Origin: Candidatus Methylomirabilis lanthanidiphila
GTDB taxonomy: Bacteria > Methylomirabilota > Methylomirabilia > Methylomirabilales > Methylomirabilaceae
Direction: 5' to 3'
NCBI GenBank assembly: GCA_902196205.1
Contig: CABIKM010000014.1
Location: 1-64,000 of the forward strand
DNA length: 64,000 bases
Shown piece by piece: positions 16,580-32,400 of the stretch. The notes beneath the pieces are model-generated. The model was not told the DNA's origin, ran no database searches, and saw only the letters and a program-made list of their open reading frames with translations. Each line of letters starts with the position of its first letter. The first letter of the stretch is position 1. Both the position numbers and the translations under genes were made by a program.

Positions 16580-17458
16580 TCAGCTCTTGCCGCGCATCAC
16601 GAAACCCCACGCCTTTTGATAGGTTCGCACAACCGCCCGGTAAGAGGTGAACTGCCTGTACGGACGCGTATGGCGCAACAGATCAACGGTCGCCGCGTCA
16701 TGAGGATGTTCGGTCGCCGCTTGCAACAGTCCTTGCACACGACATACTTCCCGATCGCTTATCGTCCAAAGAAACAGTCGACTGTACACCTCTTTATGAT
16801 TTAAAATTAGTCGGTTGATCAGATGGGGTCGCTGTGATCGAATTCGAGCCAGCATACTATTTTCACGCTTTCGATACCATGCATAGACGTCATGCACCTT
16901 GAGAAAACGAACCCCATTCTTATATAACTTGATCCAGAAATCCCAATCCGCGTGTCCCGGCATGGCGTCAAACCCACCATACACTTCAATCACGCGTCGA
17001 CGAATGAGTGAACAGTACTGGAGATAGTTATCGAAATACAACTCGCCCGCGAACAGGAATGGGCCGGTATACCACATCCCGGAGACCTGCCCGAAAAGCT
17101 TGACGTCCGTGAATGCAACGCCACAATCCTGGCGCCGTCTCAATCCATCGAGAGTGGTCGTGAGAAAACGCTCTCCAAGTACGTCGTCAGCGTCTACGAA
17201 CAGAATAAAGTCTCCGGACGACCTCGCAAAGCCGGCATTTCGCGCCAAACCGACGTTACGATGCGCCACCCGCACGACAGAGATCCCTCGATACGTTTCG
17301 GGTAGGCGAGACAGAACCTCCAGCGTATAAGGATCAGTAGATCCGTCATCAACAACAATGATCTCCATGTCGGCGATATCCTGCGCAACAACGGACTCGA
17401 TGCACTCGTCAAGGAACTCCCCAATATTGTGGCACGGAATGATCACCGATACGTCCAC
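16580..17458 (-). CDS. GT2 glycosyltransferase
   Basis: 292 residues. GT-A family 2: VSVIIPCHNIGEFLDECI at the N-terminus, IIVVDDGSTD near 35, FILFVDADD (DxD metal site) near 90, and GHADWDFWIKL in the acceptor region near 170. No membrane helix, so cytoplasmic. It probably adds one sugar to the lipid-linked repeat unit of the exopolysaccharide. It is the last gene of the EPS locus, but 400 bases separate it from the flippase gene, so it may have its own promoter. Confidence 0.85.
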   Translation of the reverse strand: MDVSVIIPCHNIGEFLDECIESVVAQDIADMEIIVVDDGSTDPYTLEVLSRLPETYRGISVVRVAHRNVGLARNAGFARSSGDFILFVDADDVLGERFLTTTLDGLRRRQDCGVAFTDVKLFGQVSGMWYTGPFLFAGELYFDNYLQYCSLIRRRVIEVYGGFDAMPGHADWDFWIKLYKNGVRFLKVHDVYAWYRKRENSMLARIRSQRPHLINRLILNHKEVYSRLFLWTISDREVCRVQGLLQAATEHPHDAATVDLLRHTRPYRQFTSYRAVVRTYQKAWGFVMRGKS

Positions 17459-17858
17459 TGCCTAATCCTCCCTGCAATGGCGAGGTTACCGATGAAGCGG
17501 ATCATATAGTCCGGCAACATTCCGCCTCACCCCTCTTGGATCGAGTCGGCATGGTCCGCGTACCTTGTAACCGTTCCTCGGAAAAGTCGGAAGGCACCGC
17601 CGCACCGGTCCCGATTAGTCTCTCGGCAGATCGGACAATGAAGGCCGTCGATCAGGCTGACCCGTTTCGCAAGCAAGGCAGGCCGCAGCCGGGCGGAGAG
17701 TTTTTATTCACCGATAGAGAATGTGCCGACAAGATCGAGTAAAACCAGGTCAACCTGATCCTCGAAAAGAGCCTAGTAGCACTCCTGAACCGCAAGATAC
17801 ATAACATTCTCGTCCGGAGCGACGGGGTCTGATCCCTGCACCCTGAAGTGATCGTCAG
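17459..17858. other. Intergenic region
   Basis: 400 bases between two minus-strand genes. Short open frames here have no recognisable protein content or ribosome site. I see no terminator with a T-tract and no repeat. Confidence 0.35.
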
Positions 17859-19412
17859 TTAGCCGTCGGCCCACATCGATGCTTCGGTTTCTCCAGCTTT
17901 CCATCGAAGCCAGCCGCGCAACCTTTGATAAGGTATCCGGTGAGCAAGTTGAATGAGCAAGTCTGTCATATCCGGTCCAAGCCAGCGCGTCGGAAGTGCA
18001 ACCACGCCTCCAAGGCAGCCCGATAGGATCAGCGCCAGCCTTATCGATGGAGGCAGCTCCAGCATCCGTCCCAGCGCAGATCCCATCGCGCCCCCCGCTC
18101 CAACACCAAGCGCGACCAAGAGAGCGGGCAGATGCGTCCCAAGAAACCAGCGCCAACTGTTTTCCAGGAAGTGAACGCTTAACTGAGACATCAGAATACT
18201 TATCAGGGCAAGCGCCGCTACAACGCCGATCGATACGCCTGTCAGACCCCACGCCATACCCACCAGCGAGCCACCGAACACTGTAACCGCGTACAGTATG
18301 TATCGTACGGCCTGCTGGTAAACCATACCGCCCGCCTTGGTCAACGACCCCGCAAGGTTATATACCGCACGGAACAGGCCGCCAACGCAAAGGATTTGCA
18401 ACGGCAGAATAACCCCGGCCCATCGGTCTCCGAGGACGACCGGGACCAGTTCCGGAGCGCTGATCGCAATAGCGACAGAGGCAGGAAGTACGATCGCGCT
18501 GACCAACACCAATGCCCGGCGATAGGCCAACTGCAACCTCTCCGGCTCACCCCTGATCATAGCCAGCGCCGGAAAGAGGACAAGGGAGAGTTCGGCCGTC
18601 ACAAAGGTAGTGGGAAGGTAGGCAATCTGATACGCGTATCGGTAAAACCCTAAGGCCTCGGTTCCCAACCAGGTCCCAACTACAAAATAATCGGCGTTTG
18701 TAGCGGCATAACTCGCCAACATCGTCAGGCTCACGCCGAAACCGAAGCGCAAGATCTCTGCAGCCTCACGACGAGCCAGCGACAAACCTCCGGAGAGCGG
18801 GGCCATGAAGAGAAGCGTCATGGATGTGGCGAGGCTTCCTGCGACCAATCCGACCGCTAAACCCCACACTCCGTAGCCGAGAAGAACCAAACCGACACTC
18901 ACCCCCGCATACCCCACGAGATTTCCGGTTGCGTCCGCCCAGAATTGACGCTTGAAGTCGAGTTTGCGGAGAAGAAGGGACCGGGATACGACTCCTATAT
19001 TTTCCGAGATGGAGCACAACGAAAGGAGACGTAGAACAGACGCCATCTCGGGATATTGAAAGAAGCCGGCAACAGTGGGAGCTGTCGTCCACACCACCGC
19101 CGTCGCCAGGATGCCGGCAATCAACGAAAGGGTAAAACCAACCCGGATGTGAATCTGGGCCAGGTTCAACCGCTGAACCAGCGCTGCACCAATTCCGACA
19201 TCCGAAATCGTGCTGACAAGCGCGGCGACGACTACAGCCAACCCTAGAAGCCCTAAATCCTTCGGGTCAAGCAGACGCGCCACAATGACCGCGACAACGA
19301 GTTGGACCACAAGTCTAAGGCCTGACGAGGCGATACGCCACCGGACCCCCTCAAATACCAAAGTCGATGTCGGAGTCGAACTCACACCCCGATGCCTTTC
19401 AGATCGGTTCAT
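17859..19412 (-). CDS. MOP-superfamily polysaccharide flippase (Wzx-like)
   Basis: About 517 residues with 12-14 predicted membrane helices. Typical early motif (ARLLDPKDLGLLGLAVVV) and ISDVGIGAALVQR as in Polysacc_synt_3/WzxC-like translocases, which flip lipid-linked repeat units across the inner membrane. ATG 19412 is chosen; it overlaps the end of the upstream glycosyltransferase by 14 bases, while the longer frame to 19478 would overlap by 80. The last 60 residues form a basic cytoplasmic tail. Its place next to the polymerase/ligase and glycosyltransferases supports the assignment. Confidence 0.85.
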   Translation of the reverse strand: MNRSERHRGVSSTPTSTLVFEGVRWRIASSGLRLVVQLVVAVIVARLLDPKDLGLLGLAVVVAALVSTISDVGIGAALVQRLNLAQIHIRVGFTLSLIAGILATAVVWTTAPTVAGFFQYPEMASVLRLLSLCSISENIGVVSRSLLLRKLDFKRQFWADATGNLVGYAGVSVGLVLLGYGVWGLAVGLVAGSLATSMTLLFMAPLSGGLSLARREAAEILRFGFGVSLTMLASYAATNADYFVVGTWLGTEALGFYRYAYQIAYLPTTFVTAELSLVLFPALAMIRGEPERLQLAYRRALVLVSAIVLPASVAIAISAPELVPVVLGDRWAGVILPLQILCVGGLFRAVYNLAGSLTKAGGMVYQQAVRYILYAVTVFGGSLVGMAWGLTGVSIGVVAALALISILMSQLSVHFLENSWRWFLGTHLPALLVALGVGAGGAMGSALGRMLELPPSIRLALILSGCLGGVVALPTRWLGPDMTDLLIQLAHRIPYQRLRGWLRWKAGETEASMWADG

Positions 19413-20544
19413 ATACCGTAATTCGCTGACGTCGCACAACCTTGAGCAACCCGGCGGCAAAGCCGGCGTTCCATGCACAAAAGCTCATGGGCACTCGGAA
19501 CACCGCTATCGCAGAGCCCGCTTTTCCGATCACCAGACCAACGAAGGCGAACAGGTAGAACAGCACCTGGATTACGAAAGCGCTACGGTACAACGGCTCC
19601 ATCGCCAAGATGGTGCTTGACAGGAAAGCGCCACACGCCAGGACGGGCGTCAGGTACCGCAAGATGCGATGGGAGAGGAGCGCCACAGCCGCCTTTGGAA
19701 AACGGAACGGGTTAAGGAGCGCACCTCGCCGCAAGAGAGCGGTTAAACAGAGTACGGTCATCCGGGCCCTTGCCAGGATTTCATCTCGTAATGTGGACGG
19801 CGCCACATCAAAGACAACGGCATCTCGTACGAAGACGATCCGATGTAGACCCAGCAGCAGATCCAACGGTACCGCATCATCAACGTCTTCATCAGGCTGC
19901 AGTGTCCTGAACAGTTGTTTGCGTACGGCCATACAGCAGCCGCTTCCGGCAGTAAGAAGCCCTGCAGCACTCTCCCACTCCCGCAATCTGGTTTCGTACG
20001 TCCAATACCGACCCGTATCCTCGGCCACCGTATGGCGGTCCGTCGCATACACGAGTCGCCCCACCGCGCACCCCACCCGAGGGTCGGAAAAATGACCGAG
20101 AATAGCGGAAAGAAAATCGGCCCGGAAAGAGGTGCGCGCATCGGTAAATACCAGAATATCGCCCCTCGCGATCTCGGCTGCGCGATTGTGGGCCATCGCC
20201 CTGCCGCCACGCGGTAAGGTTAGCAGCCTCACCTTTGGATCAGACCACGCAGCCACGATCTCGTTGGTGCTATCGGTCGACCCATCGGAGGCCACAATGA
20301 CCTCAACCGTCGCCCTGATCGGAACATCCAGTGCTGCGATGTTGTTCAGACGATCGGCAATAGCATCGCCTTCATTGTGCGCGGCCACGATCACCGTCAC
20401 ACTCACCGGCACATCCTGTTTGACGCCTTCTTCCCTCCGACAAATCAGAGCGAGGATTTTGACCAGAACAGGGTAACCCACATACGCATAAAGAAAAAGC
20501 GTTGCACAGCACCAGAGCGTAATCTTTGCAACGACTATCGCCAT
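19399..20544 (-). CDS. Membrane-anchored GT2 glycosyltransferase
   Basis: 381 residues. One N-terminal helix (LWCCATLFLYAYVGYPVLV), GT2 catalytic domain with VTVIVAAHNEGDAI, VIVASDGSTDST and ILVFTDART, the TAGSGCCMAVRK segment in place of an acceptor loop, and about three C-terminal helices. The topology resembles processive and polyprenyl-linked GT2 enzymes (cellulose-synthase or IcaA type), but the QxxRW motif is not seen, so single-sugar transfer is more likely. Overlaps the upstream GT4 gene by 10 bases and the flippase by 14; translational coupling is likely. Confidence 0.85.
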   Translation of the reverse strand: MAIVVAKITLWCCATLFLYAYVGYPVLVKILALICRREEGVKQDVPVSVTVIVAAHNEGDAIADRLNNIAALDVPIRATVEVIVASDGSTDSTNEIVAAWSDPKVRLLTLPRGGRAMAHNRAAEIARGDILVFTDARTSFRADFLSAILGHFSDPRVGCAVGRLVYATDRHTVAEDTGRYWTYETRLREWESAAGLLTAGSGCCMAVRKQLFRTLQPDEDVDDAVPLDLLLGLHRIVFVRDAVVFDVAPSTLRDEILARARMTVLCLTALLRRGALLNPFRFPKAAVALLSHRILRYLTPVLACGAFLSSTILAMEPLYRSAFVIQVLFYLFAFVGLVIGKAGSAIAVFRVPMSFCAWNAGFAAGLLKVVRRQRITVYEPI

Positions 20545-21704
20545 GCTGGTGAGAAGGCCGAAAGACCTACCTCTACGTGCTTCCTTGTAGTTGCTTCAAG
20601 GCTGTATTCTCGAGCAATTTCATATCCCCGCCGGATGAGACTGATGCGAAGATCGGAGTCATTAATGGCTCTCAAAACGGCCTCAGCTACTTCTTGTGGC
20701 GATTCAGGGGGAACAAGTAGCGCATCCCGACCGTCCTTCACAATATCCGGAATCCCGCCCACCGGGGTAGCAATGACCGGGAGCCCGCGAGCCATCGCTT
20801 CAAAAATAACCCTCGGAAAACCCTCGGCATAGGTTGGGAAGACAAACAAGTCGGCGGCATCATACTCCCGTATGAGCTCTACCTCGTCGTAAATCCCCCC
20901 CGTCAGCTTCACGTGTTCCGATAAGCCGGCATCCTGCACCCGTCGGGTCAGTTCATCGACACCGGGTCCCGTCCCGACGAACGTCACTTTGAAGTTGTCG
21001 ATTTGCCCTCTCAGAAGCTTCACGGCCTCCAGCAGCACAAAGATTCCCTTTTTCTCCAGGAGCGTACCGACGAACAGTAACTGGATACAGGAACCCCGGC
21101 AAGTATCCGGCCGATCTGCAATTTGTTCCTCCGGAATAGGCGACCACAAGATATTGAGGATGCGGTTGCCGTTCCGCTTGTACTTCCTGTACAAGGCTTC
21201 GCCTTGAGTAATCACCACAGCGTGCTTCACCATCCAACGGGTCAGACCCTCGAAAAGCTTTACGGCAGCCCGGGCCGCCACCTTTGAGAGCCCTCGATAG
21301 CGGCCCTGCTCATATTGTGCCTCCAGGTCTCCTACTACGTACAGCACAACGGGAATCTTCCGCGCAACAGCGCTGAGATAGCCGATGATCCCGAGGGGAC
21401 TCGGAAGCCTGATATAGAGAAGGTCCCAGGACCGTGATGCACGCCAGATCTTGTGCGCACATCCAGGAAACACAGGGAACGAGCTGGTTACCCCGCTAAA
21501 ATACGGTAATATCTCGAGAGAGATATTGGTCGCGCGGGGCTCATATCGTGCTTGCGGTATATCGAATGTCGCCACCGGGTTACACACTACAACCTGTTCA
21601 AAGTATTCGGCCAGCGCATCGACCTCCACACCATAGGTCCGATCCATCTTGAAACGGTCGCCTCTAAGCGAAACCGGAGCGTCATACAGCAGGACGGTCT
21701 TCAT
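20535..21704 (-). CDS. GT4-family glycosyltransferase
   Basis: 389 residues, GT-B fold. C-terminal donor domain with LLFVGTLLEKKGIFVLLEA, KVTFVGTGPG and the signature FVFPTYAEGFPRVIFEAMA followed by GLPVIATPVGGIPDIV. The N-terminal half is more divergent (GVEVDALAEYF). Cytoplasmic, acting on undecaprenyl-linked glycan. Start ATG 21704 overlaps the upstream ligase stop as ATGA, and its own 3' end overlaps the next gene by 10 bases, so it lies in a tightly coupled block. Confidence 0.88.
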   Translation of the reverse strand: MKTVLLYDAPVSLRGDRFKMDRTYGVEVDALAEYFEQVVVCNPVATFDIPQARYEPRATNISLEILPYFSGVTSSFPVFPGCAHKIWRASRSWDLLYIRLPSPLGIIGYLSAVARKIPVVLYVVGDLEAQYEQGRYRGLSKVAARAAVKLFEGLTRWMVKHAVVITQGEALYRKYKRNGNRILNILWSPIPEEQIADRPDTCRGSCIQLLFVGTLLEKKGIFVLLEAVKLLRGQIDNFKVTFVGTGPGVDELTRRVQDAGLSEHVKLTGGIYDEVELIREYDAADLFVFPTYAEGFPRVIFEAMARGLPVIATPVGGIPDIVKDGRDALLVPPESPQEVAEAVLRAINDSDLRISLIRRGYEIAREYSLEATTRKHVEVGLSAFSPAWR

Positions 21705-23182
21705 GCACCACCCCCACCGGCCCCAATCGAGTGCTCTTCGCTGATATGAGAATGCGGCCGGACTCGGACAGCGATCTGCGACTCCTGCAAGCCCCTATGC
21801 TCAACCTCCGCAGCATGATCAGCCCAAATATGTGCCGAACTCACGGCGACACCCAAAATGGTCCACGCCAGGATGTGATTAAAGTCGTCCAAGAAAAACA
21901 TCTGAGCGCACAATGAAACGAGTGACCCCAGCCCACCCCTCAGCAGGTTCTCCCCTGTGGGATGCGTCGTCTCTCGCAGGCTTCGCACGACACGGCGTAT
22001 CGTGAAGTAGAGAACGCCAAGCAGCCCGACAAATGCCAGAATCCCCCCTTCGGCCCAAGTCGTCAGGTAGAAGTCGTGTGGATTCTTGTCGGCATATGCG
22101 ACGGTCCCGGGGACATTTAACGCAAAGTTGCCGAGGCCCACACCCAAGAGGGGATGCTCCAGGATCTCCTGGAGCCCCCGCAGTTGTAATTCCAGCCGGA
22201 GTGCGTTGGTGATATCACGATGCCTGACATCCTCCTCAAGCGAGAAAATGCTCCAAAACCGATCCACTACCTCTTGTGGCCCCACGTATCCCAAAACGAG
22301 AATGCATAGCCCGACTAGCGAGAGAGCAACCGTGCGTCGCCTGCTGGCTCCAAGAACAAAGAAACCCAGCAGAACCCCCAGCCATGCAGCTCGATTAAAG
22401 GTGAAGAGCAGAGCGACAAGGGACAGTCCAACCGACGACCACACCGAAAGGCGAGCCAGTGTCGAGAGCGCAGGAACCAGACCAAGGCCCACCGCCAGAG
22501 GCAACACGAGCGCAAGATGTTGACCCGTCGCTGTCCTTGTCCCTATACCGGCGTAAATATTCAGATCATAAGAAGAACCATGTATATAGCCGGACAGGCC
22601 GTAGGCGCTAAGCCCTCCCGTCACGAGAACAAGTGTAAGGAGTGTCCGGACATGCCACACTCTGTCTCGAAAGGACATCAGAAAGGCAAACAGCAGAGAG
22701 TGAAAAAACCATTTCGCGAGGAGCGGCGCGCCGACCTCTGGCGCTTTCGCCACTATTAATGACAGCGTATTACCAAAAAGAAGCAGAGCCACAGATATCG
22801 CAATGTCACGATCTTCTATCTTCACATCACGGGTTACCAGAGACCGTAGACATATGATCCCAATCGGTAGCACACTGAACAATGCGGAAAGGGGTATCAT
22901 AAGCGTCCCAACCGCTATTCGAAGCGTACCGAACGGTAGAAGGGCCAAACTCGCAACAAACAAGACCCACAGTATGCCTGTGCGCTGTGGTTCCAGCGCC
23001 CACAATACGGTAAAACACAGCAACAGAAAAAGCCCGAGGGCAATTAGGCCGACTGAGTCGAACAGATACGTGACAGTCCCTACCCCCAGGATGCCTCCGA
23101 TGAGCCCAACCGCACCCCATCGAGAGACGGGTATCCCCCTCGATCTGCCCGTGACATCTACGTCAGTTGCTGTATCGAACAT
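21701..23182 (-). CDS. O-antigen ligase / Wzy-like polymerase family protein
   Basis: 493 residues with about 12 membrane helices and one large periplasmic loop (about 290-380) containing LELQLRGLQEILEHPLLGVGLGN and DKNPHDFYLTTWAEGG, the Wzy_C/WaaL pattern with conserved Arg and His. Such proteins join or polymerise lipid-linked repeat units on the periplasmic side. In an exopolysaccharide locus with a Wzx-like flippase, Wza and Wzc, a polymerase role is more likely than lipopolysaccharide ligation; that is inference. It begins 32 bases after the triple-fusion gene. Confidence 0.85.
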   Translation of the reverse strand: MFDTATDVDVTGRSRGIPVSRWGAVGLIGGILGVGTVTYLFDSVGLIALGLFLLLCFTVLWALEPQRTGILWVLFVASLALLPFGTLRIAVGTLMIPLSALFSVLPIGIICLRSLVTRDVKIEDRDIAISVALLLFGNTLSLIVAKAPEVGAPLLAKWFFHSLLFAFLMSFRDRVWHVRTLLTLVLVTGGLSAYGLSGYIHGSSYDLNIYAGIGTRTATGQHLALVLPLAVGLGLVPALSTLARLSVWSSVGLSLVALLFTFNRAAWLGVLLGFFVLGASRRRTVALSLVGLCILVLGYVGPQEVVDRFWSIFSLEEDVRHRDITNALRLELQLRGLQEILEHPLLGVGLGNFALNVPGTVAYADKNPHDFYLTTWAEGGILAFVGLLGVLYFTIRRVVRSLRETTHPTGENLLRGGLGSLVSLCAQMFFLDDFNHILAWTILGVAVSSAHIWADHAAEVEHRGLQESQIAVRVRPHSHISEEHSIGAGGGGA

Positions 23183-23214
23183 CGGACACCCGGATTCCTG
23201 TACCTACTTGGTCT

Positions 23215-26200
23215 CTACGCTGAATTGGTATTCATTGAAATAGCAGGCAAGGCCGGATGAACCGTACTCGCTCGCCTCAGCACGGCTTCGATCCTTGCGC
23301 GCAGTTCCTCCAACTTGAAGGGCTTGCGGAGGTAATCGTCTGCGCCGGACTGTAGCGCAGGAATCGCGTCGACCTCTTCCCCGTATCCTGTGATCATGAT
23401 GATTGGGATACGGCTGTACACGGGGTGCGCGCGAAGCTGCTGACACAGTTCGAGGCCGCTCCTATCCGGCAGTTTCACATCAAGAAGGATCAGATGAGGA
23501 GCCTCGGCCATGATCCGGTCAAATCCCTCACGGGCGGTGTGGGCTGTCGTCACGATAAACATGTCGTTCACGGCCAAGAACTCTTTTAACAGCTCGCACA
23601 TCTGCTTATTATCGTCAACCACCACCACACGATATTGTTCGGCGGCCTCAGCAAGCGCAGAGAGTGGCGCCTCCTCAGGTGGAGTATAACTCGGCACAAC
23701 CTCCTGGACCTTTCGAAGAAGGCGAGCAAAGTTGCCGGACATCGCGAGGTGTTCCATCTCATCGACAAGTGCTTCGATCTCGAACAGCAGTTTCGGTCGC
23801 TGTCGAATGGCAAAGATCCTCCCGTGACCCAGCGCCAGCACCTCTTCACTGTCTTCCCAGAGCGCCTCATGCATCTTTTCTCCAGGCCGTAACCCTACAT
23901 GCTCCTGGACAACTTCGGTTGGAGACAGGCCAAGCGATATCACCAAGTTGTGAGCAAGCTCGGTGATTTTTATGGGACCACCCATATTCAAAACAAAAAC
24001 ATCACCCCTTTTTTCTAACGTTGTGCTTTCCAGGACAAGGCCGACCGCTTCAGGGATCGTCATGAAGAAACGTGTGGCGCCGGGATCGGTGATGTGGATG
24101 GAGCCCCCGTTTTCTACCTGCCGCTCAAACAACGGGACAACGCTTCCTGCGCTGCCGAGCACGTTACCGAACCTCACGATTCGGAATTGCGTCGCGTGAG
24201 AGTTATTCGAACAAAAATCCGTAATCTTAGTGAGAACGTCCCCCTCACCCGAACCCTCTCCCCCAAATGGGGGCGAGGGGGAAAAAAAGCTTTCATGTCT
24301 ATGGGGTACGCTACCGGCGCATGGGGTATTGCTCAGCGCTGTAATATACATCTCGCAAATCTTTTTGGTTGCCCCCATAAGATTGCCCGGATTGACCGCC
24401 TTGTCCGTCGAGATAAAGACGAACGTCTCTGCGGCATATCGCCTCGCCAGGTCGATCAGTCGTTTCGTCCCAACGACGTTATTCATCACCGCCTCTGCCG
24501 GATGTCCCTCCAGGATCGGCACGTGCTTATAGGCCGCGGCGTGGAATATGACCTGCGGCCTGGTCCGTTCGAATATCTCAGACATGCGCGGAATATGCTT
24601 AATATCAGCCAGGGCCGCCACCACCGTAACATCAGCACAGCGTTCCTTGATCTCCAGTGAAATTTCGTGCAAGGCGTTCTCGGCACGTTCGACCATGATG
24701 AGCGACTCGACGCCATACCCGATCAGTTGCCGGCACAGTTCTGAGCCGATAGATCCCCCTGCTCCCGTGACCACAACGCGCTTCCCGCGAAGAAACGCGG
24801 TAATCGTCTCCCTATCGACGGATACCGGTTCCCGCGTAAGCAAGTCATCACTATGCACCTTACGCAGATAGCGCAGTTTCCCTTCGCCCCTTACAAGTTG
24901 GGTAAACGAAGGAAGGGTCTTGAACGGCAGACCGGCTTGTGCGCACATACCGCTGACGCGGCGCATCACGTTGCCGTTTGCAGTCGAAATCGCGACAACC
25001 GCTTCGTCGATTGCATGCGCCTTCGCAAGGTCAGGAAGCTCATCAATGGCGCCGAGGACAGGTCGGCTATGAATGGTCGCATCCTGCTTCTGAGGATCAT
25101 CATCGACAAATCCAATAAGGTTATAATCCAGTGACGGATTGCCGAGGATTTCTCTTGCAATCGCTTCACCGGTTTCCCCGGCCCCGACAATGACAACGTT
25201 GCGGCGGCCATGTGTCGAAGGTACGGAAGTCTCTCGCCTCTCAGCACGCAATCGCACAAGCAGCCGCGTACCTCCCGTCAGCAGAACGATCAGAGGTGCG
25301 GTCAAGACGAGAACCGATCTCGGATAGCTGTGCCATCCCAGCAGGATTAGCGCAAAGCCGTGTAGGCCTACCCCCAGGGTCGATGCCTTGATGATCTGTC
25401 TCAGATCCTCTATGCCGGCGAACCTCCAGATACTCTTATGAGTTCGCAGGACCAGAAACGATAGCAGGTAGACCGCGCAGACGACGGGAAGGCCGTAGAG
25501 GAGGTGCCACACCTCTTTCTCCGGCAGTGCCCAGTCAAAGCGGAGCATGAAGGCCCACAGGTTTGCAGCAACAATGGTAAGACAATCCAGCGTCAGCCTT
25601 GCGCATTGTTGCAAGGTAGAGGGCGGGTTGACTGCCGCGACAATCCGCCGCCCTATTGTCACAGACGTAAGCATGACGTACCAAAGGTCACGCCCGATTG
25701 ACCGTGTACGAACATACTCCAGGTCACTCTTCAGCTTCTCCTGAATGAACTGCTTGGTATAGTGTTCAATGGTGTCCACCCCAACAGGAAATTTGTCCGA
25801 TTCATCGATCCACGCCAGTTGGGTCGGACCGGTGATGCCCGGTTTAACCTCCAGGATTTCGCGTTGTGTCGCCGTATACTGTTGAACGATCGAAGGAATC
25901 TCGGGGCGAGGCCCAACCAGGCTCATGTCGCCTGTCAGGACATTGATGAACTGGGGCAACTCGTCGAGCTTAAGCCGTCTCAGCCATCCACCTACCCGCG
26001 TCACACGCGGATCGGCGCTTCCAGTTAAGGGCGGTCCCAGTCGCTCTGCATCTGCGACCATGGATCTGAATTTGAGAACCCTGAAACTCTTTCCGCGCCG
26101 CCCGGCCCGCTCCTGAGTGTAGAAGACCGGACCCGGCGAATCGAGCTTAATGGCAACAGCAACGAGGAGAAAGATGGGAAGCAGCAATGCCAGCGCTACC

Positions 26201-26235
26201 AGGGACAGAACAAGATCGATTGCCCGCTTGAGCAT
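23215..26235 (-). CDS. Fusion: sugar-1-phosphate transferase + WbpM/CapD 4,6-dehydratase + receiver domain
   Basis: 1006 residues in three parts. Residues 1-195: bacterial sugar transferase (WbaP/PglC type) with FRVLKFRSMVADAE, LDELPQFINVLTGDMSLVGPRP; it starts the repeat unit by moving a sugar-1-phosphate to undecaprenyl phosphate. Residues about 210-850: a complete WbpM/CapD protein with four helices, a nucleotide-binding domain (VVIVGAGETGE, near 352) and an SDR domain (VVVTGAGGSIGSELC near 488, FISTDKAVNPGNLMGATKK), a UDP-sugar 4,6-dehydratase. Residues about 870-1000: a full receiver domain (VVVDDN, LILLDVKLP, MITGYG, LRKPF). A palindromic repeat (24236-24300) adds a loop (FFSPSPPFGGEGSGEGD) between the catalytic lysine helix and RIVRFGNVLGSAG. 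All key residues are present. It may couple synthesis of the first sugar to phosphorylation signals. No kinase is adjacent. Confidence 0.85.
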   Translation of the reverse strand: MLKRAIDLVLSLVALALLLPIFLLVAVAIKLDSPGPVFYTQERAGRRGKSFRVLKFRSMVADAERLGPPLTGSADPRVTRVGGWLRRLKLDELPQFINVLTGDMSLVGPRPEIPSIVQQYTATQREILEVKPGITGPTQLAWIDESDKFPVGVDTIEHYTKQFIQEKLKSDLEYVRTRSIGRDLWYVMLTSVTIGRRIVAAVNPPSTLQQCARLTLDCLTIVAANLWAFMLRFDWALPEKEVWHLLYGLPVVCAVYLLSFLVLRTHKSIWRFAGIEDLRQIIKASTLGVGLHGFALILLGWHSYPRSVLVLTAPLIVLLTGGTRLLVRLRAERRETSVPSTHGRRNVVIVGAGETGEAIAREILGNPSLDYNLIGFVDDDPQKQDATIHSRPVLGAIDELPDLAKAHAIDEAVVAISTANGNVMRRVSGMCAQAGLPFKTLPSFTQLVRGEGKLRYLRKVHSDDLLTREPVSVDRETITAFLRGKRVVVTGAGGSIGSELCRQLIGYGVESLIMVERAENALHEISLEIKERCADVTVVAALADIKHIPRMSEIFERTRPQVIFHAAAYKHVPILEGHPAEAVMNNVVGTKRLIDLARRYAAETFVFISTDKAVNPGNLMGATKKICEMYITALSNTPCAGSVPHRHESFFSPSPPFGGEGSGEGDVLTKITDFCSNNSHATQFRIVRFGNVLGSAGSVVPLFERQVENGGSIHITDPGATRFFMTIPEAVGLVLESTTLEKRGDVFVLNMGGPIKITELAHNLVISLGLSPTEVVQEHVGLRPGEKMHEALWEDSEEVLALGHGRIFAIRQRPKLLFEIEALVDEMEHLAMSGNFARLLRKVQEVVPSYTPPEEAPLSALAEAAEQYRVVVVDDNKQMCELLKEFLAVNDMFIVTTAHTAREGFDRIMAEAPHLILLDVKLPDRSGLELCQQLRAHPVYSRIPIIMITGYGEEVDAIPALQSGADDYLRKPFKLEELRARIEAVLRRASTVHPALPAISMNTNSA
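24236..24300. repeat. Palindromic repeat inserted in frame in the triple-fusion gene
   Basis: cccctcacccgaaccctctcccccaaatgggggcgaggggg type element, related to 5066-5165 and 26250-26315. Read on the minus strand it keeps the frame open and encodes a Ser/Pro/Gly-rich loop in the SDR domain. Confidence 0.7.
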
Positions 26236-26249
26236 TGTCTATCTCCGGT

Positions 26250-26320
26250 TCACCTGCTCACCCCTCATCCTATCCTTCCCCCGCAAGGGGGGAAGGGATA
26301 TCCGGGAGGAGAGCTGTCTG
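26250..26320. repeat. Palindromic repeat, intergenic copy
   Basis: cacccctcatcctatccttcccccgcaaggggggaagggata: C-rich and G-rich arms around 'gcaa', same family as the two in-frame copies. Lies between the aminotransferase and the triple-fusion gene. Only the repeat and the ribosome site are seen in this 100-base gap. Confidence 0.6.
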
Positions 26321-26339
26321 CAAGTTGTCACCATGAGCC

Positions 26340-27515
26340 CTATCTCCGAAGGGCATGGAGTGTGTTGCGTACAGACTCGATCACTCGCCCAACGTCGGCA
26401 TCCGTCATCCCCGGATAGATCGGGAGTGAGATCGCGCGCTCGAAGATTCGCTCGGAGACCGGAAAGGCTCCCCAAGAGTAGCCACATCTCTTCTGATAAA
26501 CGGGATGTAGGTGCAGGGGAATGAAGTGGACCGAGGTCCCGATGCCGTGCTCTCCCAGAGAACGAATCACCTCGTTTCGTCCGCCAGCCAAAGTAGCAAG
26601 GTTAAGCTGCAAGATGTAGAGATGCCAGGCGTGAGTCCCGTAGTCGGCCTCCTGAGGGATCACGCACGCCTCCACACCTGAAAAGCCCTCATTGTACATT
26701 CTGGCGATCTCTCGGCGGCGCTTATACAAATCATCAGATCTCCTGAGCTGTTGGATTCCCAACGCTGCAGCGAGATCGGTCAGATTGTACTTAAAGCCGA
26801 AATCGAGGATCTCGTAATACCAGTGCCCCTTATCCGAGTACCGGTTCCAGGCATCACCGCTCAGACCATGGAGACTCATCCGCTTGATTCTGGACGCATA
26901 ATCGTCTCGCTCTGTCGTCACCATTCCGCCTTCCCCAGTGGTTATCGGCTTGGTGGCATAGAAACTGAACGCGGTAAGATCACTGATGGTCCCGACCATC
27001 TTTCCTTTATAGGTGGCAGGCAGGGCGTGAGCGGCGTCCTCAATCACGTGAAGCCCACGTGCTTTGGCAAGCTCCATGATCGGGTCCATGTCACACGGCT
27101 GGCCTGCGATGTGCACAGGGATGATGGCCTTGGTCTTCGGGGTAATCAGCGGCTCGATGGTCGTCACATCAATGTTGAATGTGTCCGGACGGCAATCGGT
27201 CAGGACCGGATGGGCTCCGAGGTATGCGACCACCTCCCCGGTAGCGGCAAACGTATAGGTGGGCAGGATCACCTCGTCGCCAGGACCGATACCAACCGCT
27301 TCAAGTGCCAGATGGAGCGCGGCCGTACCGGAGTTGACGGCGATGGCATGTCGAGCGCCGACATAGGCCGCAAACATCTCCTCAAATCTCCTGACCTTCG
27401 GACCGGTCGTAAGCCAACCGGACCGAAGCGTCTCGACGACTTCGGCGATCTCTTCTTCACCGATGGATGGGAGGTGAAACGGGATTCTCTGATACCGCCC
27501 ATCCTCAGTGTTCAT
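26340..27515 (-). CDS. DegT/DnrJ/EryC1/StrS-family PLP sugar aminotransferase
   Basis: 391 residues. AVNSGTAALHLALEAVG and PTYTFAATGEVVAYLGA (cofactor and substrate sites), DAAHALPATYKGK, and SFYATKPITTGEGG with the PLP lysine near residue 180. These fit a full-length sugar aminotransferase, which would turn the 4-keto-6-deoxy sugar made by the neighbouring WbpM-type dehydratase into an amino sugar; the pathway link is inference from synteny. ATG 27515 has GAGGA upstream; the longer frame begins with TTG 27530. The 5' neighbour ends 44 bases upstream. Confidence 0.9.
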   Translation of the reverse strand: MNTEDGRYQRIPFHLPSIGEEEIAEVVETLRSGWLTTGPKVRRFEEMFAAYVGARHAIAVNSGTAALHLALEAVGIGPGDEVILPTYTFAATGEVVAYLGAHPVLTDCRPDTFNIDVTTIEPLITPKTKAIIPVHIAGQPCDMDPIMELAKARGLHVIEDAAHALPATYKGKMVGTISDLTAFSFYATKPITTGEGGMVTTERDDYASRIKRMSLHGLSGDAWNRYSDKGHWYYEILDFGFKYNLTDLAAALGIQQLRRSDDLYKRRREIARMYNEGFSGVEACVIPQEADYGTHAWHLYILQLNLATLAGGRNEVIRSLGEHGIGTSVHFIPLHLHPVYQKRCGYSWGAFPVSERIFERAISLPIYPGMTDADVGRVIESVRNTLHALRR

Positions 27516-27559
27516 ATCCGGTATCCTCAAGTCTCATCGGTCATTTGCGCGGGGGCGCT

Positions 27560-28840
27560 TTAATGAATTTTCTGGAGAGAGACCTGATCGATCCAGGCGG
27601 TTCCTCCGGTAAGATTATCGAGCTTCTGACTGGCGTCTCGTCGGATCTTGAGAACGACAGCATGGGTCTGGGCGGATACCTGAAATGGTATGCGCAACTG
27701 GGACCACGGGTGGTCGCCGATGTAGCTCTCGCTGACGGCGTACCGTCTGCCGTCGAGAAAATCTGCAACCTCCAGATAGGGGCCGCTTGAGGTTGTGATG
27801 CCTGTCGTCTTGATGGAACTACTCAGCAGGTAGCGACTTCCCGGCGTCACCGGAACCACCTGAGACGCGGCGGTCAGTCCAGGGTTGTGAGCGCCGTCAA
27901 AGACGATCTTGAGCGACCGCGCCCCCTCCGTAGAACTCGACGTACTCACGCCAACCTCTACCCCAGTACTCCGCCCAACCCGCCAATCGAATCCGCCCCC
28001 CCACGTCTCGTCGCGCTCGAACCCGGCATTCCACACCAGGTTGCCGAGGCTATCCGCTCTCCCGCCAATCCCCCGCAATCGCAACAGCAGGCCCCAGGCC
28101 GATACCGCCTCCGACAGGTCCCGATGTTCAAGCATCATATTGACATATGATAAGGCCACGCGAGGATCGAGTACTGAAGGATGGAGGTCTGTAAGCCGCC
28201 GCCACACCACCTTTCCGTTCTCAACCTCTTCCTGTCTGATCAGGTAGTCCAGATAGTCCGATACGATTCCGGTCTCAGCGGGTAGGGCGGTCTCGATAAA
28301 ATCTGCCGGTCGCATAAGGGTATGAATAAGGGTGAAATAGGTCCGGCGCTGATAAGGCTCGGTCATCACCAGATGTCGCAGGTTGGTAATCGCGCCCTCG
28401 TAGTCTTCAAGCTGGATCTGGAACAGGGCGGCCTCCCAACGCAGTCTCGAACTGCTGGGATTGAATCGCAACGCAAGCCCCAAGGCGTCCCTGGCCTCTT
28501 TGTCCTGCCCCAGCCACCAGTGGACCCGTGCCGAATCGAACCAGGTCCGGCTTGAGAGGGGATTTGCTCCGAGGGCCATTCGATATTCCTTCAAGGCCTC
28601 CTGATAGTCCTGCACGCCCACGCTGTATTGGCGGATCCGCCCTATATGCTGGTGCCGGTACTGAGGGTGTTCGGGGTGAAACCGCCAGGCGCGCAGTAAC
28701 TCAGGATCGTGGGGAAGTTGAGGGATCGCAAAGGCAGCCGCCCATGGGCGAACGATCATCCAGGCGAGCAGCATGGCGAGGCTTGAAAGCAGGAGGAGCG
28801 CGACGATCTTGTCTCGCGACGTTCTCAACTCGATAACCAT
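27560..28840 (-). CDS. Membrane-anchored TPR protein with carbohydrate-binding-like domain
   Basis: About 426 residues. An N-terminal helix (VALLLLSSLAMLLAWMIV) anchors it, facing the periplasm. Tetratricopeptide-like helical pairs cover about 55-250 (YQEALKEYRMALGANPLS, ARDALGLALRFNPSSS). A C-terminal jelly-roll-like region from about 275 (NLVWNAGFERDETWGGGFDWRV ... AWIDQVSLQKIH) looks like a CBM4/9-type module. This combination suggests a periplasmic scaffold that touches the growing polysaccharide. ATG 28840 has GGAG upstream; the frame is open to 28867. No enzymatic motif. Confidence 0.7.
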   Translation of the reverse strand: MVIELRTSRDKIVALLLLSSLAMLLAWMIVRPWAAAFAIPQLPHDPELLRAWRFHPEHPQYRHQHIGRIRQYSVGVQDYQEALKEYRMALGANPLSSRTWFDSARVHWWLGQDKEARDALGLALRFNPSSSRLRWEAALFQIQLEDYEGAITNLRHLVMTEPYQRRTYFTLIHTLMRPADFIETALPAETGIVSDYLDYLIRQEEVENGKVVWRRLTDLHPSVLDPRVALSYVNMMLEHRDLSEAVSAWGLLLRLRGIGGRADSLGNLVWNAGFERDETWGGGFDWRVGRSTGVEVGVSTSSSTEGARSLKIVFDGAHNPGLTAASQVVPVTPGSRYLLSSSIKTTGITTSSGPYLEVADFLDGRRYAVSESYIGDHPWSQLRIPFQVSAQTHAVVLKIRRDASQKLDNLTGGTAWIDQVSLQKIH

Positions 28841-28910
28841 AACACTCCGTCTCCCCCATCGCACCACTCAACCCAAAAAACCCAATGAACCTAATTAACT
28901 TAACCCGACC

Positions 28911-31217
28911 TTAGGAGTCGCGGTGGGACATCACCGAATCGCGTCGCTCCGATTTCCGGTGGTAGTAGTCGTGATAGTCGCGATAGTATGAATAGCCGTT
29001 GCCATGGATTTCCAGGTTGTTCAGGACCACGCCCAGAATTTTCGCGTTGACGGCGTCGAGCGTTCTCACCGCCCGTTGCGCGGCATCGCGAACCGTTTTA
29101 CCTGCGCGGATCACCAGCAGGGTGCCGTCAGCAAATGTCGACAGCAGGACACTGTCAGTAAACCCCAGCACCGGCGGCGAGTCGATGATCACATGTTTGA
29201 ACTGCTGGCACAGCAGGTCCACAGCCGCCTTCATCCGCTCGGAACCGAGCAGTTCCGCCGGGTTCAACGGCGATTGTCCTGCCGGCAGCAGATAGAGGTT
29301 GGGGATCGTCGTCGGTTTGATGGCGGCGCTGAGCTCTGCGTCTCCCACAAGGAAGTTCGACAATCCGGGCGCCCGATCCTGCTCCAACAGTCGGTGACAA
29401 TCGGGATAGCGCATATCCGCATCGATCAGCAGAACATCGCCGCCGAGTTGCGACAGCGCAATGCTCAGATTGATCGACACCGATGTTTTACCGTCGCCCG
29501 GTTCCGCGCTCGTCACAAGTAGCAGCTTCGGAGGGTTGTCCGGAAGCGAAAAGAGCAGCGAGGTCCGGATGTTCCGGATGGCCTCGCTGACCAGCGAGGA
29601 TTGATCATGATGCATGACCAGCTCAAACGATTCGATGGCCTGGCCGTTGGTCGTTCCTTTCAGGCGCTTCCGTCGTTCGACGGAGGCTAATGCCGGCACA
29701 GCCCCCAGTATCGGCAGCGCAAACGTCGATTCGACCTCTTCGATCTTATTGACCGTATTGTCAAGGTAGTCGGCAAAGAAGGCGAGACCGATCCCCAGGC
29801 TCAAACCAAGAACAATCCCAAGTGTCAAGTTGAGCAGCTTCTTGGGGCGATCAGGCCAGAGGGGGATCTTTGCCCGATCGGTGACCTGAATATTCGTGGA
29901 ATCCAGCCCCGCCGACACCGCTGTCTCCTTCATGCGCTGCAACAGGCCGGCATACAGTTCGCGGTTGATGTCCACCTCTCGCTTCAGGATGTTGTACTGA
30001 ATGGAATCATCATTCGTCTTCAGCGCGACCTGCTTCTGCTTATCAACCGAGACCTGTAACAGATGTTCCGTTTTCACAGCCGCCTCATAGCTCGACCGAA
30101 GCCCGTCGACAATTCTTTGGACCTCGCCGTCGAGCCGCCCCTTCACCTCCTCGACATTACTCTTCAGGGCGATCATAGTGGGATAGTCCGGAAGGAACTT
30201 TTCAGACAGCTTCCTGTATTCCGCTTGCAGACGGTAATACTCTTTCTTCAAGTCAACGATCAGCGCATTTTCCAACACCGATGGGATCGATTGGAAGTCC
30301 TGTCCCTGGGTCTGTCGATACAGCCCCTCTTTCGCCAATCGATCACTGCGCGCCTTCATCAGGGCATCGGTCAGCAGCGAGAGCTGCTTGGTTGTCTGCT
30401 CCTGTTTTTCATCGAGCACCAGATATTGTTTCTGCTTCGCAAACTTTTGGAGCAGCTCATCGGAGCCCTCGAGCTTCGCCCTTACGTCCTGGATCTGTTT
30501 CGCCAGAAAGTCGCCGGCGTATTTTGTCGCGCCCACTTTTTGCTCGATGCTGTGCTCGATAAAGCCTTCCGCCATCGCATTGGCCACCTGGGCGGACAGC
30601 TCCGGCGAGGCGCTCAGAAAAGAAATCTTTACAAGACGGGTATTCTTGACGGGTTCGATCTCCAGCTTTTTCAGGAAGCTCTTCACGACGGGTGACTCGG
30701 TCGTTGAGGTCTCGCCAGGGGATAGCTGTGCTGGCGGTTGATGATAAACGGAGCCAACAAGGTCCACAAGCCACGTCCACGTTGGAGAGGCCGGACCTGC
30801 TGCGCCCTTTCCTGAGAACTCCGGATTGGCGTCAAGTCTGAGCAGCTTGACAATCCGCTCCGCCAGGGAATAGCTTGTCAGCAGCTTGTATTGCGTCTGA
30901 TAATAGTCGTCGGTTTCCTTGTCGGCCGTTGGTGAGACTTGATCGAACTTCAGGATATTGGGTTCTGCCTTGTCGATCTGGAGAGTCGCGGTAGCCTTAT
31001 AGATCGACTGTTGCACAAACGTTGCCGTCGCCACGGTGATCACCGTGACAAGGAAACAGGTCAGCACGATCCAGCGATGCTTATAGAGCACGTGCCAGTA
31101 ATCTCTGAGGTGCGGCTCTTTCTTATCCTCAGGAAACGCCCTGACAGGCCATAGCTGCGGTTTCGCCAGATCTACATTGCCGTCCTTGGCTTTTACAAGC
31201 GCATTATCAGATTCCAT
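28911..31217 (-). CDS. Wzc/GumC-type chain-length regulator with BY-kinase domain
   Basis: 768 residues. Wzz domain with first helix (WIVLTCFLVTVITVATATF) near 60, long periplasmic coiled coil to about 460, second helix LNLTLGIVLGLSLGIGLAFF, then a tyrosine autokinase. Walker A EPGDGKTSVSINLS, Walker A' DVLLIDADMR, Walker B HVIIDSPPVLG. The C-terminus is a tyrosine cluster (YSYYRDYHDYYHRK), the usual autophosphorylation tail. It sets polymer length and drives export together with Wza. The Wza-like gene lies 34 bases upstream in the same direction. Everything needed for a BY-kinase is visible. Confidence 0.92.
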   Translation of the reverse strand: MESDNALVKAKDGNVDLAKPQLWPVRAFPEDKKEPHLRDYWHVLYKHRWIVLTCFLVTVITVATATFVQQSIYKATATLQIDKAEPNILKFDQVSPTADKETDDYYQTQYKLLTSYSLAERIVKLLRLDANPEFSGKGAAGPASPTWTWLVDLVGSVYHQPPAQLSPGETSTTESPVVKSFLKKLEIEPVKNTRLVKISFLSASPELSAQVANAMAEGFIEHSIEQKVGATKYAGDFLAKQIQDVRAKLEGSDELLQKFAKQKQYLVLDEKQEQTTKQLSLLTDALMKARSDRLAKEGLYRQTQGQDFQSIPSVLENALIVDLKKEYYRLQAEYRKLSEKFLPDYPTMIALKSNVEEVKGRLDGEVQRIVDGLRSSYEAAVKTEHLLQVSVDKQKQVALKTNDDSIQYNILKREVDINRELYAGLLQRMKETAVSAGLDSTNIQVTDRAKIPLWPDRPKKLLNLTLGIVLGLSLGIGLAFFADYLDNTVNKIEEVESTFALPILGAVPALASVERRKRLKGTTNGQAIESFELVMHHDQSSLVSEAIRNIRTSLLFSLPDNPPKLLLVTSAEPGDGKTSVSINLSIALSQLGGDVLLIDADMRYPDCHRLLEQDRAPGLSNFLVGDAELSAAIKPTTIPNLYLLPAGQSPLNPAELLGSERMKAAVDLLCQQFKHVIIDSPPVLGFTDSVLLSTFADGTLLVIRAGKTVRDAAQRAVRTLDAVNAKILGVVLNNLEIHGNGYSYYRDYHDYYHRKSERRDSVMSHRDS

Positions 31218-31251
31218 CTGTGTCTCTATCCTTTACGCATACGCATTTACA

Positions 31252-32340
31252 TCAAAACGACGCGCCGACGCCAAATCGGATGAATTCGAGGAAACCGAAC
31301 CAGGCCGACTTGAAGCCGTTACTGCTGACCAGAATGACATCATTCTTCATGACAAGCGGGCCTTTCTGGCCCTGCTCCATCTCATTGAGACTGACCTCAA
31401 TGAGCTGCTTCTTTTGCCCTTTATTCTCGCGGAATATCTTGACACCCTCAAAATCTGCCACCCGGGTAACGCCACCGGCCTCGATGATCGCCTGATCGAC
31501 CGTGACCTCCCTGCCCTTCAGGAGATAGGAGCCGGGTTTCGTCACGGCTCCTCCTACGAAGAAGCTCCCTGCCTTTGGAACGTGGACGACATCTCCGGAC
31601 TGCAGGGGAGCGTTCAACTCATCCCTCCCATTGACCAGCATCTCCTCCAGATTAATTTCGAGTACCGCCTCCTGGGCGGATTTGCCATTCGATGTAGCCG
31701 GAGGTTGCAAGCCGGGCGGTTCAGACGCGGTCGGCGACTTTGTCGCCTTGCGGATCAGATACACGACTTGATCGGACTGCTCGGTAAGTCCTTCAGCCAT
31801 TGCCAGCATATCGACGACCGAACGCGGTCCGCTGACCTCGAAGACACCCGGCTTTTTGACGGCCCCGAGGACGCTGATCCGGTGGCTGTGATGTTCGAGT
31901 ACGAAGACGCTGATTTGAGGATCACGGACGTACTTTGAGCCAAGCGCCGTCTTTATGGTCTCCTCGAGCGCTATCGCACTTTTCCCACCAGCAGACACGG
32001 TGCCCGCCAAGGGGAGTGTGATAAACCCTTCCGAGCTGACTCGAGCCTTGATCTTACTGAGCTCCTCAATGCCGAATACGGAGATCTCCAGGAGATCGCC
32101 TTGCCCCAACGTGTAGTCGCCGGCCAGACTGTCCGGATTTGCCATGGCGAGGATTCGGCTGTTCAGGGCAAGGTTATCCTTCGTTTCGCCACGGGTCATG
32201 CTGGCGATCAAGGCTTCGGTCTTTGAAACCCCGGAACTCGTCGCGCAACCCGAGCCGAACAGCATCATTATCACCCCAAACGACAGGATCGGGATAACGG
32301 CCACTGTTTCCCTGCCGGGTACGATTCTCCAGTCTGACAT
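31252..32340 (-). CDS. Wza-type polysaccharide export lipoprotein
   Basis: About 362 residues. Lipobox MLFGSGCATSS shows a lipoprotein. Poly_export domain from about 75 (YTLGQGDLLEISVFGI) followed by SLBB-type segments (ISVLGAVKKPGVFEV, FFVGGAVTKPGSYLL), ending in a short segment that may cross the outer membrane (SAWFGFLEFIRFGVGASF). Forms the outer-membrane exit channel and partners the Wzc-type kinase encoded next. ATG 32340 is chosen; a GTG at 32355 is possible but has a poorer ribosome site. Confidence 0.9.
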   Translation of the reverse strand: MSDWRIVPGRETVAVIPILSFGVIMMLFGSGCATSSGVSKTEALIASMTRGETKDNLALNSRILAMANPDSLAGDYTLGQGDLLEISVFGIEELSKIKARVSSEGFITLPLAGTVSAGGKSAIALEETIKTALGSKYVRDPQISVFVLEHHSHRISVLGAVKKPGVFEVSGPRSVVDMLAMAEGLTEQSDQVVYLIRKATKSPTASEPPGLQPPATSNGKSAQEAVLEINLEEMLVNGRDELNAPLQSGDVVHVPKAGSFFVGGAVTKPGSYLLKGREVTVDQAIIEAGGVTRVADFEGVKIFRENKGQKKQLIEVSLNEMEQGQKGPLVMKNDVILVSSNGFKSAWFGFLEFIRFGVGASF

Positions 32341-32400
32341 TGTATGATCTTTCACCTTTTCCCGCTATTGCAGCGCACAGAGTGCCTGTCGCCCCGCTGA

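What the first reader, a model, noticed from the sequence alone, without database searches (positions are those of the whole stretch)
23215..26235. One polypeptide joins the initiating sugar transferase, a WbpM-type dehydratase and a receiver domain
Initiating transferase and UDP-sugar 4,6-dehydratase are usually separate proteins. Here they are fused and carry a C-terminal receiver with all phosphorylation residues. This suggests direct phospho-control of the first committed steps of exopolysaccharide synthesis, with substrate channelling from dehydratase to transferase possible.
Basis: partly seen in the sequence, partly recalled or inferred. Interest (0 to 1): 0.8.

Follow-up and report, generated by a model that had tools for sequence, protein, structure and literature searches.

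The report
Glycan-starting enzyme fused to phosphate-switch domain
A bacterium, probably of the methane-oxidising NC10 group, encodes in one protein a sugar-modifying enzyme, the enzyme that starts a surface polysaccharide, and a phosphorylation-sensing domain; the first two are often neighbours or fused, but the added sensing domain is rare and suggests a direct signalling switch on polysaccharide initiation.

Summary
One 1006-aa ORF (23215-26235, minus strand) carries, in order, a small monotopic phosphoglycosyl transferase (PGT), four membrane helices plus CoA_binding_3, a PglF-type UDP-sugar 4,6-dehydratase, and an OmpR/PhoB-type receiver. Each part keeps its defining residues. A 956-aa orthologue with the same architecture in a second species of the genus (67% identity) makes an assembly artefact very unlikely; the receiver is under purifying selection (dN/dS 0.17).

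PGT-dehydratase fusion is not unique. It also occurs in one other species of the phylum and in Chloroflexota, and the two genes are commonly adjacent. The receiver was found only in these two species. PGT fusions to sugar-modifying enzymes and to receivers are already reported as classes. In Myxococcus a separate receiver, EpsW~P, activates the PGT EpsZ. The best reading is a cis version of that logic: a new variant of a known kind.

Direct channelling from dehydratase to transferase is unlikely: a DegT aminotransferase gene lies directly upstream, so amination probably comes between the two steps. No histidine kinase is nearby; phosphorylation and its effect are untested. This copy's dehydratase also carries an in-frame insertion of a dispersed palindromic repeat.

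The parts
23215..26235 (-). 1006-aa PGT + 4TM/CoA_binding_3 + PglF-type dehydratase + receiver fusion
   Evidence: orthologue L035:8053-10923
25657..26235 (-). PGT domain, residues 1-193 (PF02397): re-entrant helix with D7/P20, K55, D91-E92, R110
25231..25620 (-). four transmembrane helices, residues 206-335
   Evidence: helices in AlphaFold model
24886..25215 (-). CoA_binding_3 (DUF) domain, residues 341-450
23866..24873 (-). PglF-type 4,6-dehydratase (SDR), residues 455-790, with T610-D611-K612, M620, K624
24233..24332 (.). in-frame copy of a dispersed palindromic repeat; makes most of the extra residues ~637-670 in the loop after the catalytic helix
   Evidence: pLDDT below 50 at residues 642-666; absent from G010 and the other relatives aligned
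23641..23865 (-). variable linker, residues 791-865 (35% identity to G010)
23266..23640 (-). OmpR/PhoB-type receiver, residues 866-990; predicted phospho-acceptor D919 (codon 23479-23481)
26340..27530 (-). DegT aminotransferase (closest to PseC/ArnB models, below their cut-offs), directly upstream; 84% identical in G010
27560..28867 (-). TPR protein, conserved in G010 (75%)
28911..31217 (-). Wzc-like co-polymerase with tyrosine autokinase domain
31252..32355 (-). outer-membrane polysaccharide export (OPX) protein
21701..23182 (-). Wzy-like polymerase / O-antigen ligase family protein
20535..21704 (-). GT4 glycosyltransferase
19399..20544 (-). GT2 glycosyltransferase
17859..19478 (-). Wzx-type flippase
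16580..17458 (-). GT2 glycosyltransferase

Best explanation
The protein is a membrane-anchored bifunctional enzyme for the start of a Wzx/Wzy-dependent polysaccharide, with a built-in two-component receiver. The dehydratase domain converts UDP-GlcNAc (or a close relative) to the 4-keto-6-deoxy sugar; the DegT enzyme encoded next door aminates it; the N-terminal PGT transfers the finished sugar-1-phosphate to undecaprenyl phosphate. The two fused steps flank the aminotransferase step and share one 4TM/CoA_binding_3 module. Phosphorylation of D919 by a histidine kinase encoded elsewhere changes the receiver's surface or its dimerisation and so switches initiation, most likely up, through the CoA_binding_3 and catalytic domains: a cis version of EpsW~P acting on EpsZ. 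Shown: domain content, catalytic residues, conservation, selection, locus. Inferred: substrate, order of steps, phosphorylation, direction and site of control.
For: Domains and residues. Same architecture in G010 with receiver residues intact, REC 60% identity and dN/dS 0.17 while the linker drifts (35%, 0.37). The model folds all modules (mean pLDDT 87.7; complete (beta-alpha)5 receiver). The locus is a Wzx/Wzy system with OPX and Wzc. The gene order DegT then PGT-4TM-CoA_binding_3-SDR recurs in G000:C14, G010, G000:C19, G008 and G075, and within the genus close DegT homologues (above 50% identity) occur only in genomes with such fusions. Coupling of PGT and PglF recurs: a PGT nearby in 23 of 30 Chloroflexota PglF loci, fusions L106, L107, L108, and a non-homologous polytopic PGT (PF00953) fused to PglF in G068 (L069). 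Precedent for receiver control of an initiating PGT: PMC12802240.
Against: No kinase in or near the locus; the nearest HATPase match is about 60 kb away on the same contig. EpsZ is a large PGT with the opposite domain order, and its activation was modelled as dimerisation; small PGTs are reported to act as monomers (PMC12802240), so the mechanism may not transfer. Only two species carry the receiver. Relative domain placement in the model is uncertain (pTM 0.58). The repeat insertion in this copy could impair the dehydratase, although the ORF stays open.
Confidence: 0.6

Rival explanations
1. The receiver is a docking or assembly module rather than an activity switch: phosphorylation-dependent dimerisation or partner binding places the enzyme at the export machinery, or brings protomers together, without changing intrinsic activity.
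For: The receiver is OmpR/PhoB-type, a class that typically dimerises through alpha4-beta5-alpha5 on phosphorylation (general knowledge), and keeps the alpha5 end 'ELRARIEAVLRR' of that class; PglF-like enzymes and large PGTs work as dimers or higher oligomers (literature).
Against: The position matching the usual basic residue in alpha4 of PhoB-type receivers is Ala here and Val in G010 (my reading of the alignment), so the canonical interface is only partly kept.
Confidence: 0.22
2. The receiver is an inert remnant of a chance fusion with a response-regulator gene and has no regulatory effect.
For: No cognate kinase nearby; found in only two species.
Against: All phosphorylation residues kept in both species and dN/dS 0.17, close to the enzymes, while the linker drifts.
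Confidence: 0.12
3. The fusion's main purpose is substrate channelling from dehydratase straight to transferase.
For: PGT-dehydratase fusion or adjacency occurs in several lineages and with two unrelated PGT folds.
Against: A DegT aminotransferase gene sits before the fusion in each phylum case examined, so the dehydratase product is probably not the PGT donor; 4-keto sugars are not established PGT donors (general knowledge). A three-enzyme assembly remains possible.
Confidence: 0.05
4. The ORF is an assembly chimera or a read-through of separate genes.
For: The genome is in 90 contigs; separate PGT and PglF genes in one frame, one stop apart, exist in Chloroflexota.
Against: An independent same-genus assembly has the same three-part ORF; no in-frame stop; conserved start.
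Confidence: 0.01

Closest known systems
Bifunctional and regulatory-domain monotopic PGTs (O'Toole et al. 2021 PNAS, as cited in PMC12802240 and PMC10942596)
   Same: PGT catalytic domain fused to a sugar-modifying enzyme and/or a receiver.
   Different: Here both additions sit in one chain, with the 4TM/CoA_binding_3 module between the enzymes. I could not read the 2021 paper to see whether this exact three-part order is listed.
Myxococcus xanthus EpsW-EpsZ (PMC12802240)
   Same: A receiver acting on the initiating PGT of a Wzx/Wzy polysaccharide; CoA_binding_3 present.
   Different: EpsW is a separate protein; EpsZ is a large PGT with order 4TM-CoA_binding_3-PGT and no dehydratase.
Campylobacter jejuni PglF and PglC (with PglE)
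   Same: Dehydratase closest to PglF (33% identity, TM 0.93); PGT catalytic core as in PglC; DegT aminotransferase next door as PglE.
   Different: PglF and PglC are separate proteins without receivers; no PglD-type acetyltransferase was seen in this locus.
TIGR03025 exopolysaccharide polyprenyl glycosylphosphotransferase
   Same: Passes the model cut-off (328 vs 295.6 bits) through two stretches.
   Different: The two halves are in the opposite order (PGT first), so the family name describes composition, not architecture.

Membership tests
Monotopic PGT (PF02397) | Bac_transf domain over cut-off | tested here: met
   199 bits vs 27, residues 3-193
Monotopic PGT (PF02397) | DX12P re-entrant helix, Asp-Glu dyad, conserved K and two R | tested here: met
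   D7/P20, D91-E92, K55, R86, R110 in both orthologues; motif definitions from PMC12802240
Monotopic PGT (PF02397) | sugar-1-phosphate transfer to polyprenyl phosphate | not testable with these tools
   needs biochemistry
PglF/WbpM-type UDP-sugar 4,6-dehydratase | Polysacc_synt_2 over cut-off, with 4TM and CoA_binding_3 upstream | tested here: met
   324 bits vs 20; four helices at 206-335
PglF/WbpM-type UDP-sugar 4,6-dehydratase | catalytic T-D-K and Met in place of SDR Tyr (PglF T395, D396, K397, M405) | tested here: met
   T610, D611, K612, M620 aligned to 5bju/5bjy
PglF/WbpM-type UDP-sugar 4,6-dehydratase | activity on UDP-GlcNAc, retention at C5 | not testable with these tools
   needs biochemistry
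Two-component receiver (PF00072) | acidic pair, phospho-acceptor Asp, Thr/Ser, aromatic switch, Lys | tested here: met
   D874, D875, D919, T949, Y968, K971; conserved in G010
Two-component receiver (PF00072) | phosphorylated by a cognate histidine kinase | not testable with these tools
   26 HATPase matches over cut-off in the genome, none in the locus
EpsW-EpsZ mechanism | receiver~P raises PGT activity through CoA_binding_3/catalytic contact and dimerisation | not testable with these tools
   model inter-domain placement not confident (pTM 0.58)
Large PGT (4TM-CoA_binding_3-PGT) | accessory domains N-terminal to the PGT domain | tested here: not met
   PGT is N-terminal and lies outside the group of large PGTs in the tree (97/91 support)

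The most novel reading that the evidence does not exclude
A response regulator whose output is the initiating glycan machinery itself: one receiver simultaneously gates nucleotide-sugar supply (dehydratase) and commitment of the lipid carrier (PGT) through their shared 4TM/CoA_binding_3 module, giving phospho-control of two steps at once without transcription.
Probability: 0.25. Interest if true: 0.72.

Novelty: new variant of a known kind. Interest (0 to 1): 0.5.

Why it matters
Undecaprenyl phosphate is shared with peptidoglycan synthesis, so how cells switch polysaccharide initiation on and off is an open question. A natural cis fusion of receiver and PGT would be independent support for the EpsW-EpsZ proposal that receivers directly regulate initiating PGTs, in a lineage far from myxobacteria. 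It also makes the question easy to test, because kinase-independent phosphorylation and single point mutants act on one polypeptide. The recurrent coupling of PglF-type dehydratases with both monotopic and polytopic PGTs suggests these steps are commonly held together at the membrane.

Tried and rejected
Artefact or chimera: rejected by the G010 orthologue. Receiver as degenerate passenger: weakened by residues and dN/dS. Unique fusion: rejected, as PGT-PglF fusions without receiver occur in G075, G254, G405 and probably G264 (its ORF runs off the contig). Apparent fusions in G150, G271 and G210 turned out to be adjacent genes one stop apart; the Rhizobium plasmid hits are also adjacent separate genes. 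Other long PGT ORFs in the class (L134-L139) are large PGTs with N-terminal extensions that match no Pfam family and carry no receiver. The genome-contig scan found one unfused Caldilineae PglF. A plasmid record could not serve as a centre for a Pseudomonadota survey, so Myxococcota and Pseudomonadota chromosomes were not surveyed. The O'Toole 2021 papers are not held. The PGT tree does not settle how many times PGT-SDR fusions arose.

Full report
OBSERVATION. The minus-strand ORF 23215-26235 encodes 1006 aa without interruption. A plausible Shine-Dalgarno (GGAG) precedes the ATG here and in the orthologue (sequence). Pfam finds Bac_transf (3-193), CoA_binding_3 (270-428), Polysacc_synt_2 (487 onward, split in two stretches) and Response_reg (870-983), all far above cut-off.

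IS IT REAL. A search of 60 relatives and then all 95 held genomes of the phylum found one other species of the same genus (G010) with the complete three-part protein: 956 aa, 67% identity. Identity by part: PGT 78%, TM region 67%, CoA_binding_3 73%, dehydratase 66-74%, linker 35%, receiver 60%. Pairwise dN/dS (Nei-Gojobori; dS 0.9-1.6, so rough) is 0.11 for PGT, 0.14 for dehydratase, 0.17 for receiver and 0.37 for linker. The receiver is thus held by selection at a level like the enzymes. An independent assembly with the same ORF makes a chimera very unlikely.

RESIDUES AND STRUCTURE. PGT: the DX12P motif (D7, P20), K55, R86, D91-E92 and R110 are present in both species (motif definitions in PMC12802240). 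Dehydratase: phmmer and Foldseek both put C. jejuni PglF first (5bjx TM-score 0.93, 33% identity). PglF's studied positions T395, D396, K397 and M405 correspond to T610, D611, K612 and M620. Receiver: D874, D875, D919, T949, Y968, K971; closest solved relatives are mostly OmpR/PhoB-family receivers such as PhoP, YycF and PhoB. An AlphaFold model from 55 sequences of this window and fetched loci has mean pLDDT 87.7: a re-entrant helix at 2-32, four long helices at 206-335, Rossmann-type domains, and a complete (beta-alpha)5 receiver. pTM is 0.58, so the placement of domains relative to one another is not reliable, and I draw nothing from it about receiver contacts.

THE INSERT. Residues of about 637-680 have no counterpart in G010 or the other relatives aligned. 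Bases 24233-24332 match a dispersed palindromic repeat with 54 matches (E up to 10) in this genome; the best other copy shares 81% over 94 bases. The insert is in frame, lies in the loop between the catalytic helix (619-636) and the next strand (683-689), and is predicted disordered (pLDDT below 50 at 642-666). By the general SDR topology this loop is on the side of the sheet away from the active site (inference), so activity may survive. A second in-frame copy sits between the anticodon and tRNA-binding domains of the methionyl-tRNA synthetase gene (L060). This resembles Rickettsia palindromic elements (from memory; not tested further).

LOCUS. Genes 16580-32355, all on the minus strand, form a Wzx/Wzy polysaccharide locus: OPX, Wzc-type tyrosine autokinase, TPR protein, DegT aminotransferase, the fusion, a Wzy-like protein, GT4, GT2, Wzx and GT2. 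In G010 the Wzc-TPR-DegT-fusion part is shared (75-85% for the neighbours) while the genes beyond the fusion differ: a conserved head and a variable tail. The DegT enzyme scores highest against PseC and ArnB models but below their cut-offs, so only 'UDP-4-keto-sugar aminotransferase-like' is claimed.

HOW COMMON. Within the phylum, PGT-4TM-CoA_binding_3-SDR fusions occur at G000:C14 and G010 (with receiver), G075 (857 aa, none), and G000:C19 and G008:C57 (831 and 825 aa, with an Epimerase-family SDR instead). A DegT gene lies just before each of them (56-84% identical to the window's; in G010 about 1.5 kb of small ORFs and repeats lies between), and within the genus close DegT homologues (above 50% identity) occur only in genomes with such fusions. 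G068 has two further pairings: a polytopic PGT (PF00953) fused to PglF, and PglF fused to DegT. In a sample of 400 Chloroflexota, fusions without receiver were seen in G254 and G405 and, cut by the contig end, G264; 23 of the 30 PglF loci fetched there have a PGT gene within about 1.5 kb (these loci were picked by similarity to the whole fusion, which may favour this slightly). Rhizobium plasmids carry the two genes side by side but separate. None of these has a receiver. So dehydratase-PGT coupling is recurrent; the receiver is the rare part. Myxococcota and Pseudomonadota chromosomes were not surveyed, so rarity is stated only for what was searched.

MECHANISM. Chemically, a PglF-type dehydratase makes a 4-keto-6-deoxy sugar that normally needs amination (PglE) or reduction before a PGT uses it (established knowledge of the Pgl and Wbp pathways). 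With a DegT gene next door, the fused steps most likely flank the aminotransferase step. Simple two-step channelling is therefore not the best reading; a three-enzyme assembly at the membrane is possible. For the receiver, the closest precedent is M. xanthus: phosphorylated EpsW, a single receiver, lies close to EpsZ in vivo and raises its activity in a heterologous host, with modelled contacts to the CoA_binding_3 and catalytic domains (PMC12802240). That paper also cites O'Toole et al. 2021 for small PGTs fused to sugar-modifying and receiver domains. The 4TM/CoA_binding_3 module is known to be shared by large PGTs and PglF-like dehydratases (PMC10942596), so a module with a suspected regulatory role lies between the two enzymes here. 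Receiver, CoA_binding_3 and PGT are in one chain, so a cis version of EpsW-type control is the most economical reading. Its direction and site are not known. The genome has 26 HATPase matches over cut-off, none in the locus (nearest about 60 kb away on the contig), so the kinase is presumably encoded elsewhere.

IDENTITY OF THE ORGANISM. No name is given. One pMMO/AMO subunit match and the shape of the group (95 held species, one dominant second family) fit Methylomirabilota (NC10), genus Methylomirabilis or near; this is inference.

VERDICT. Confirmed observation; interpretation partly supported; new variant of a known kind. The specialist interest is in a second, cis-encoded case for receiver control of an initiating PGT.

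Noticed in passing
window 24233-24332; L060:1501-1542: A dispersed palindromic repeat (54 matches in the genome) sits in frame inside the dehydratase domain here and inside methionyl-tRNA synthetase, behaving like Rickettsia palindromic elements.
   Followed up: partly
L036:8013-10508 (G000:C19) and L037:7961-10438 (G008:C57): A second fusion in the genus: PGT + 4TM/CoA_binding_3 + Epimerase-family SDR (831/825 aa), also directly after a DegT gene.
   Followed up: partly
L111:5255-8107 (G068:C255): A polytopic WecA-like PGT (PF00953) fused to a PglF-type dehydratase, i.e. coupling with an unrelated PGT fold; L113 and L116 join PF00953 to CoA_binding_3.
   Followed up: partly
L110:712-3696 (G068:C494): PglF-type dehydratase fused to a DegT aminotransferase in one ORF.
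   Followed up: partly
window 33787-34281: A 164-aa receiver without a recognisable output domain lies at the head of the polysaccharide locus, beside a NarL-type regulator (34590-35258); a possible EpsW-like partner or a truncated regulator.
   Followed up: no
window 5069-5162: Two copies of the same repeat in inverted orientation next to each other.
   Followed up: no
L035:10924-12480 (G010): In G010 about 1.5 kb of small ORFs and repeats separates DegT from the fusion, whereas in the window the gap is about 100 bases.
   Followed up: partly
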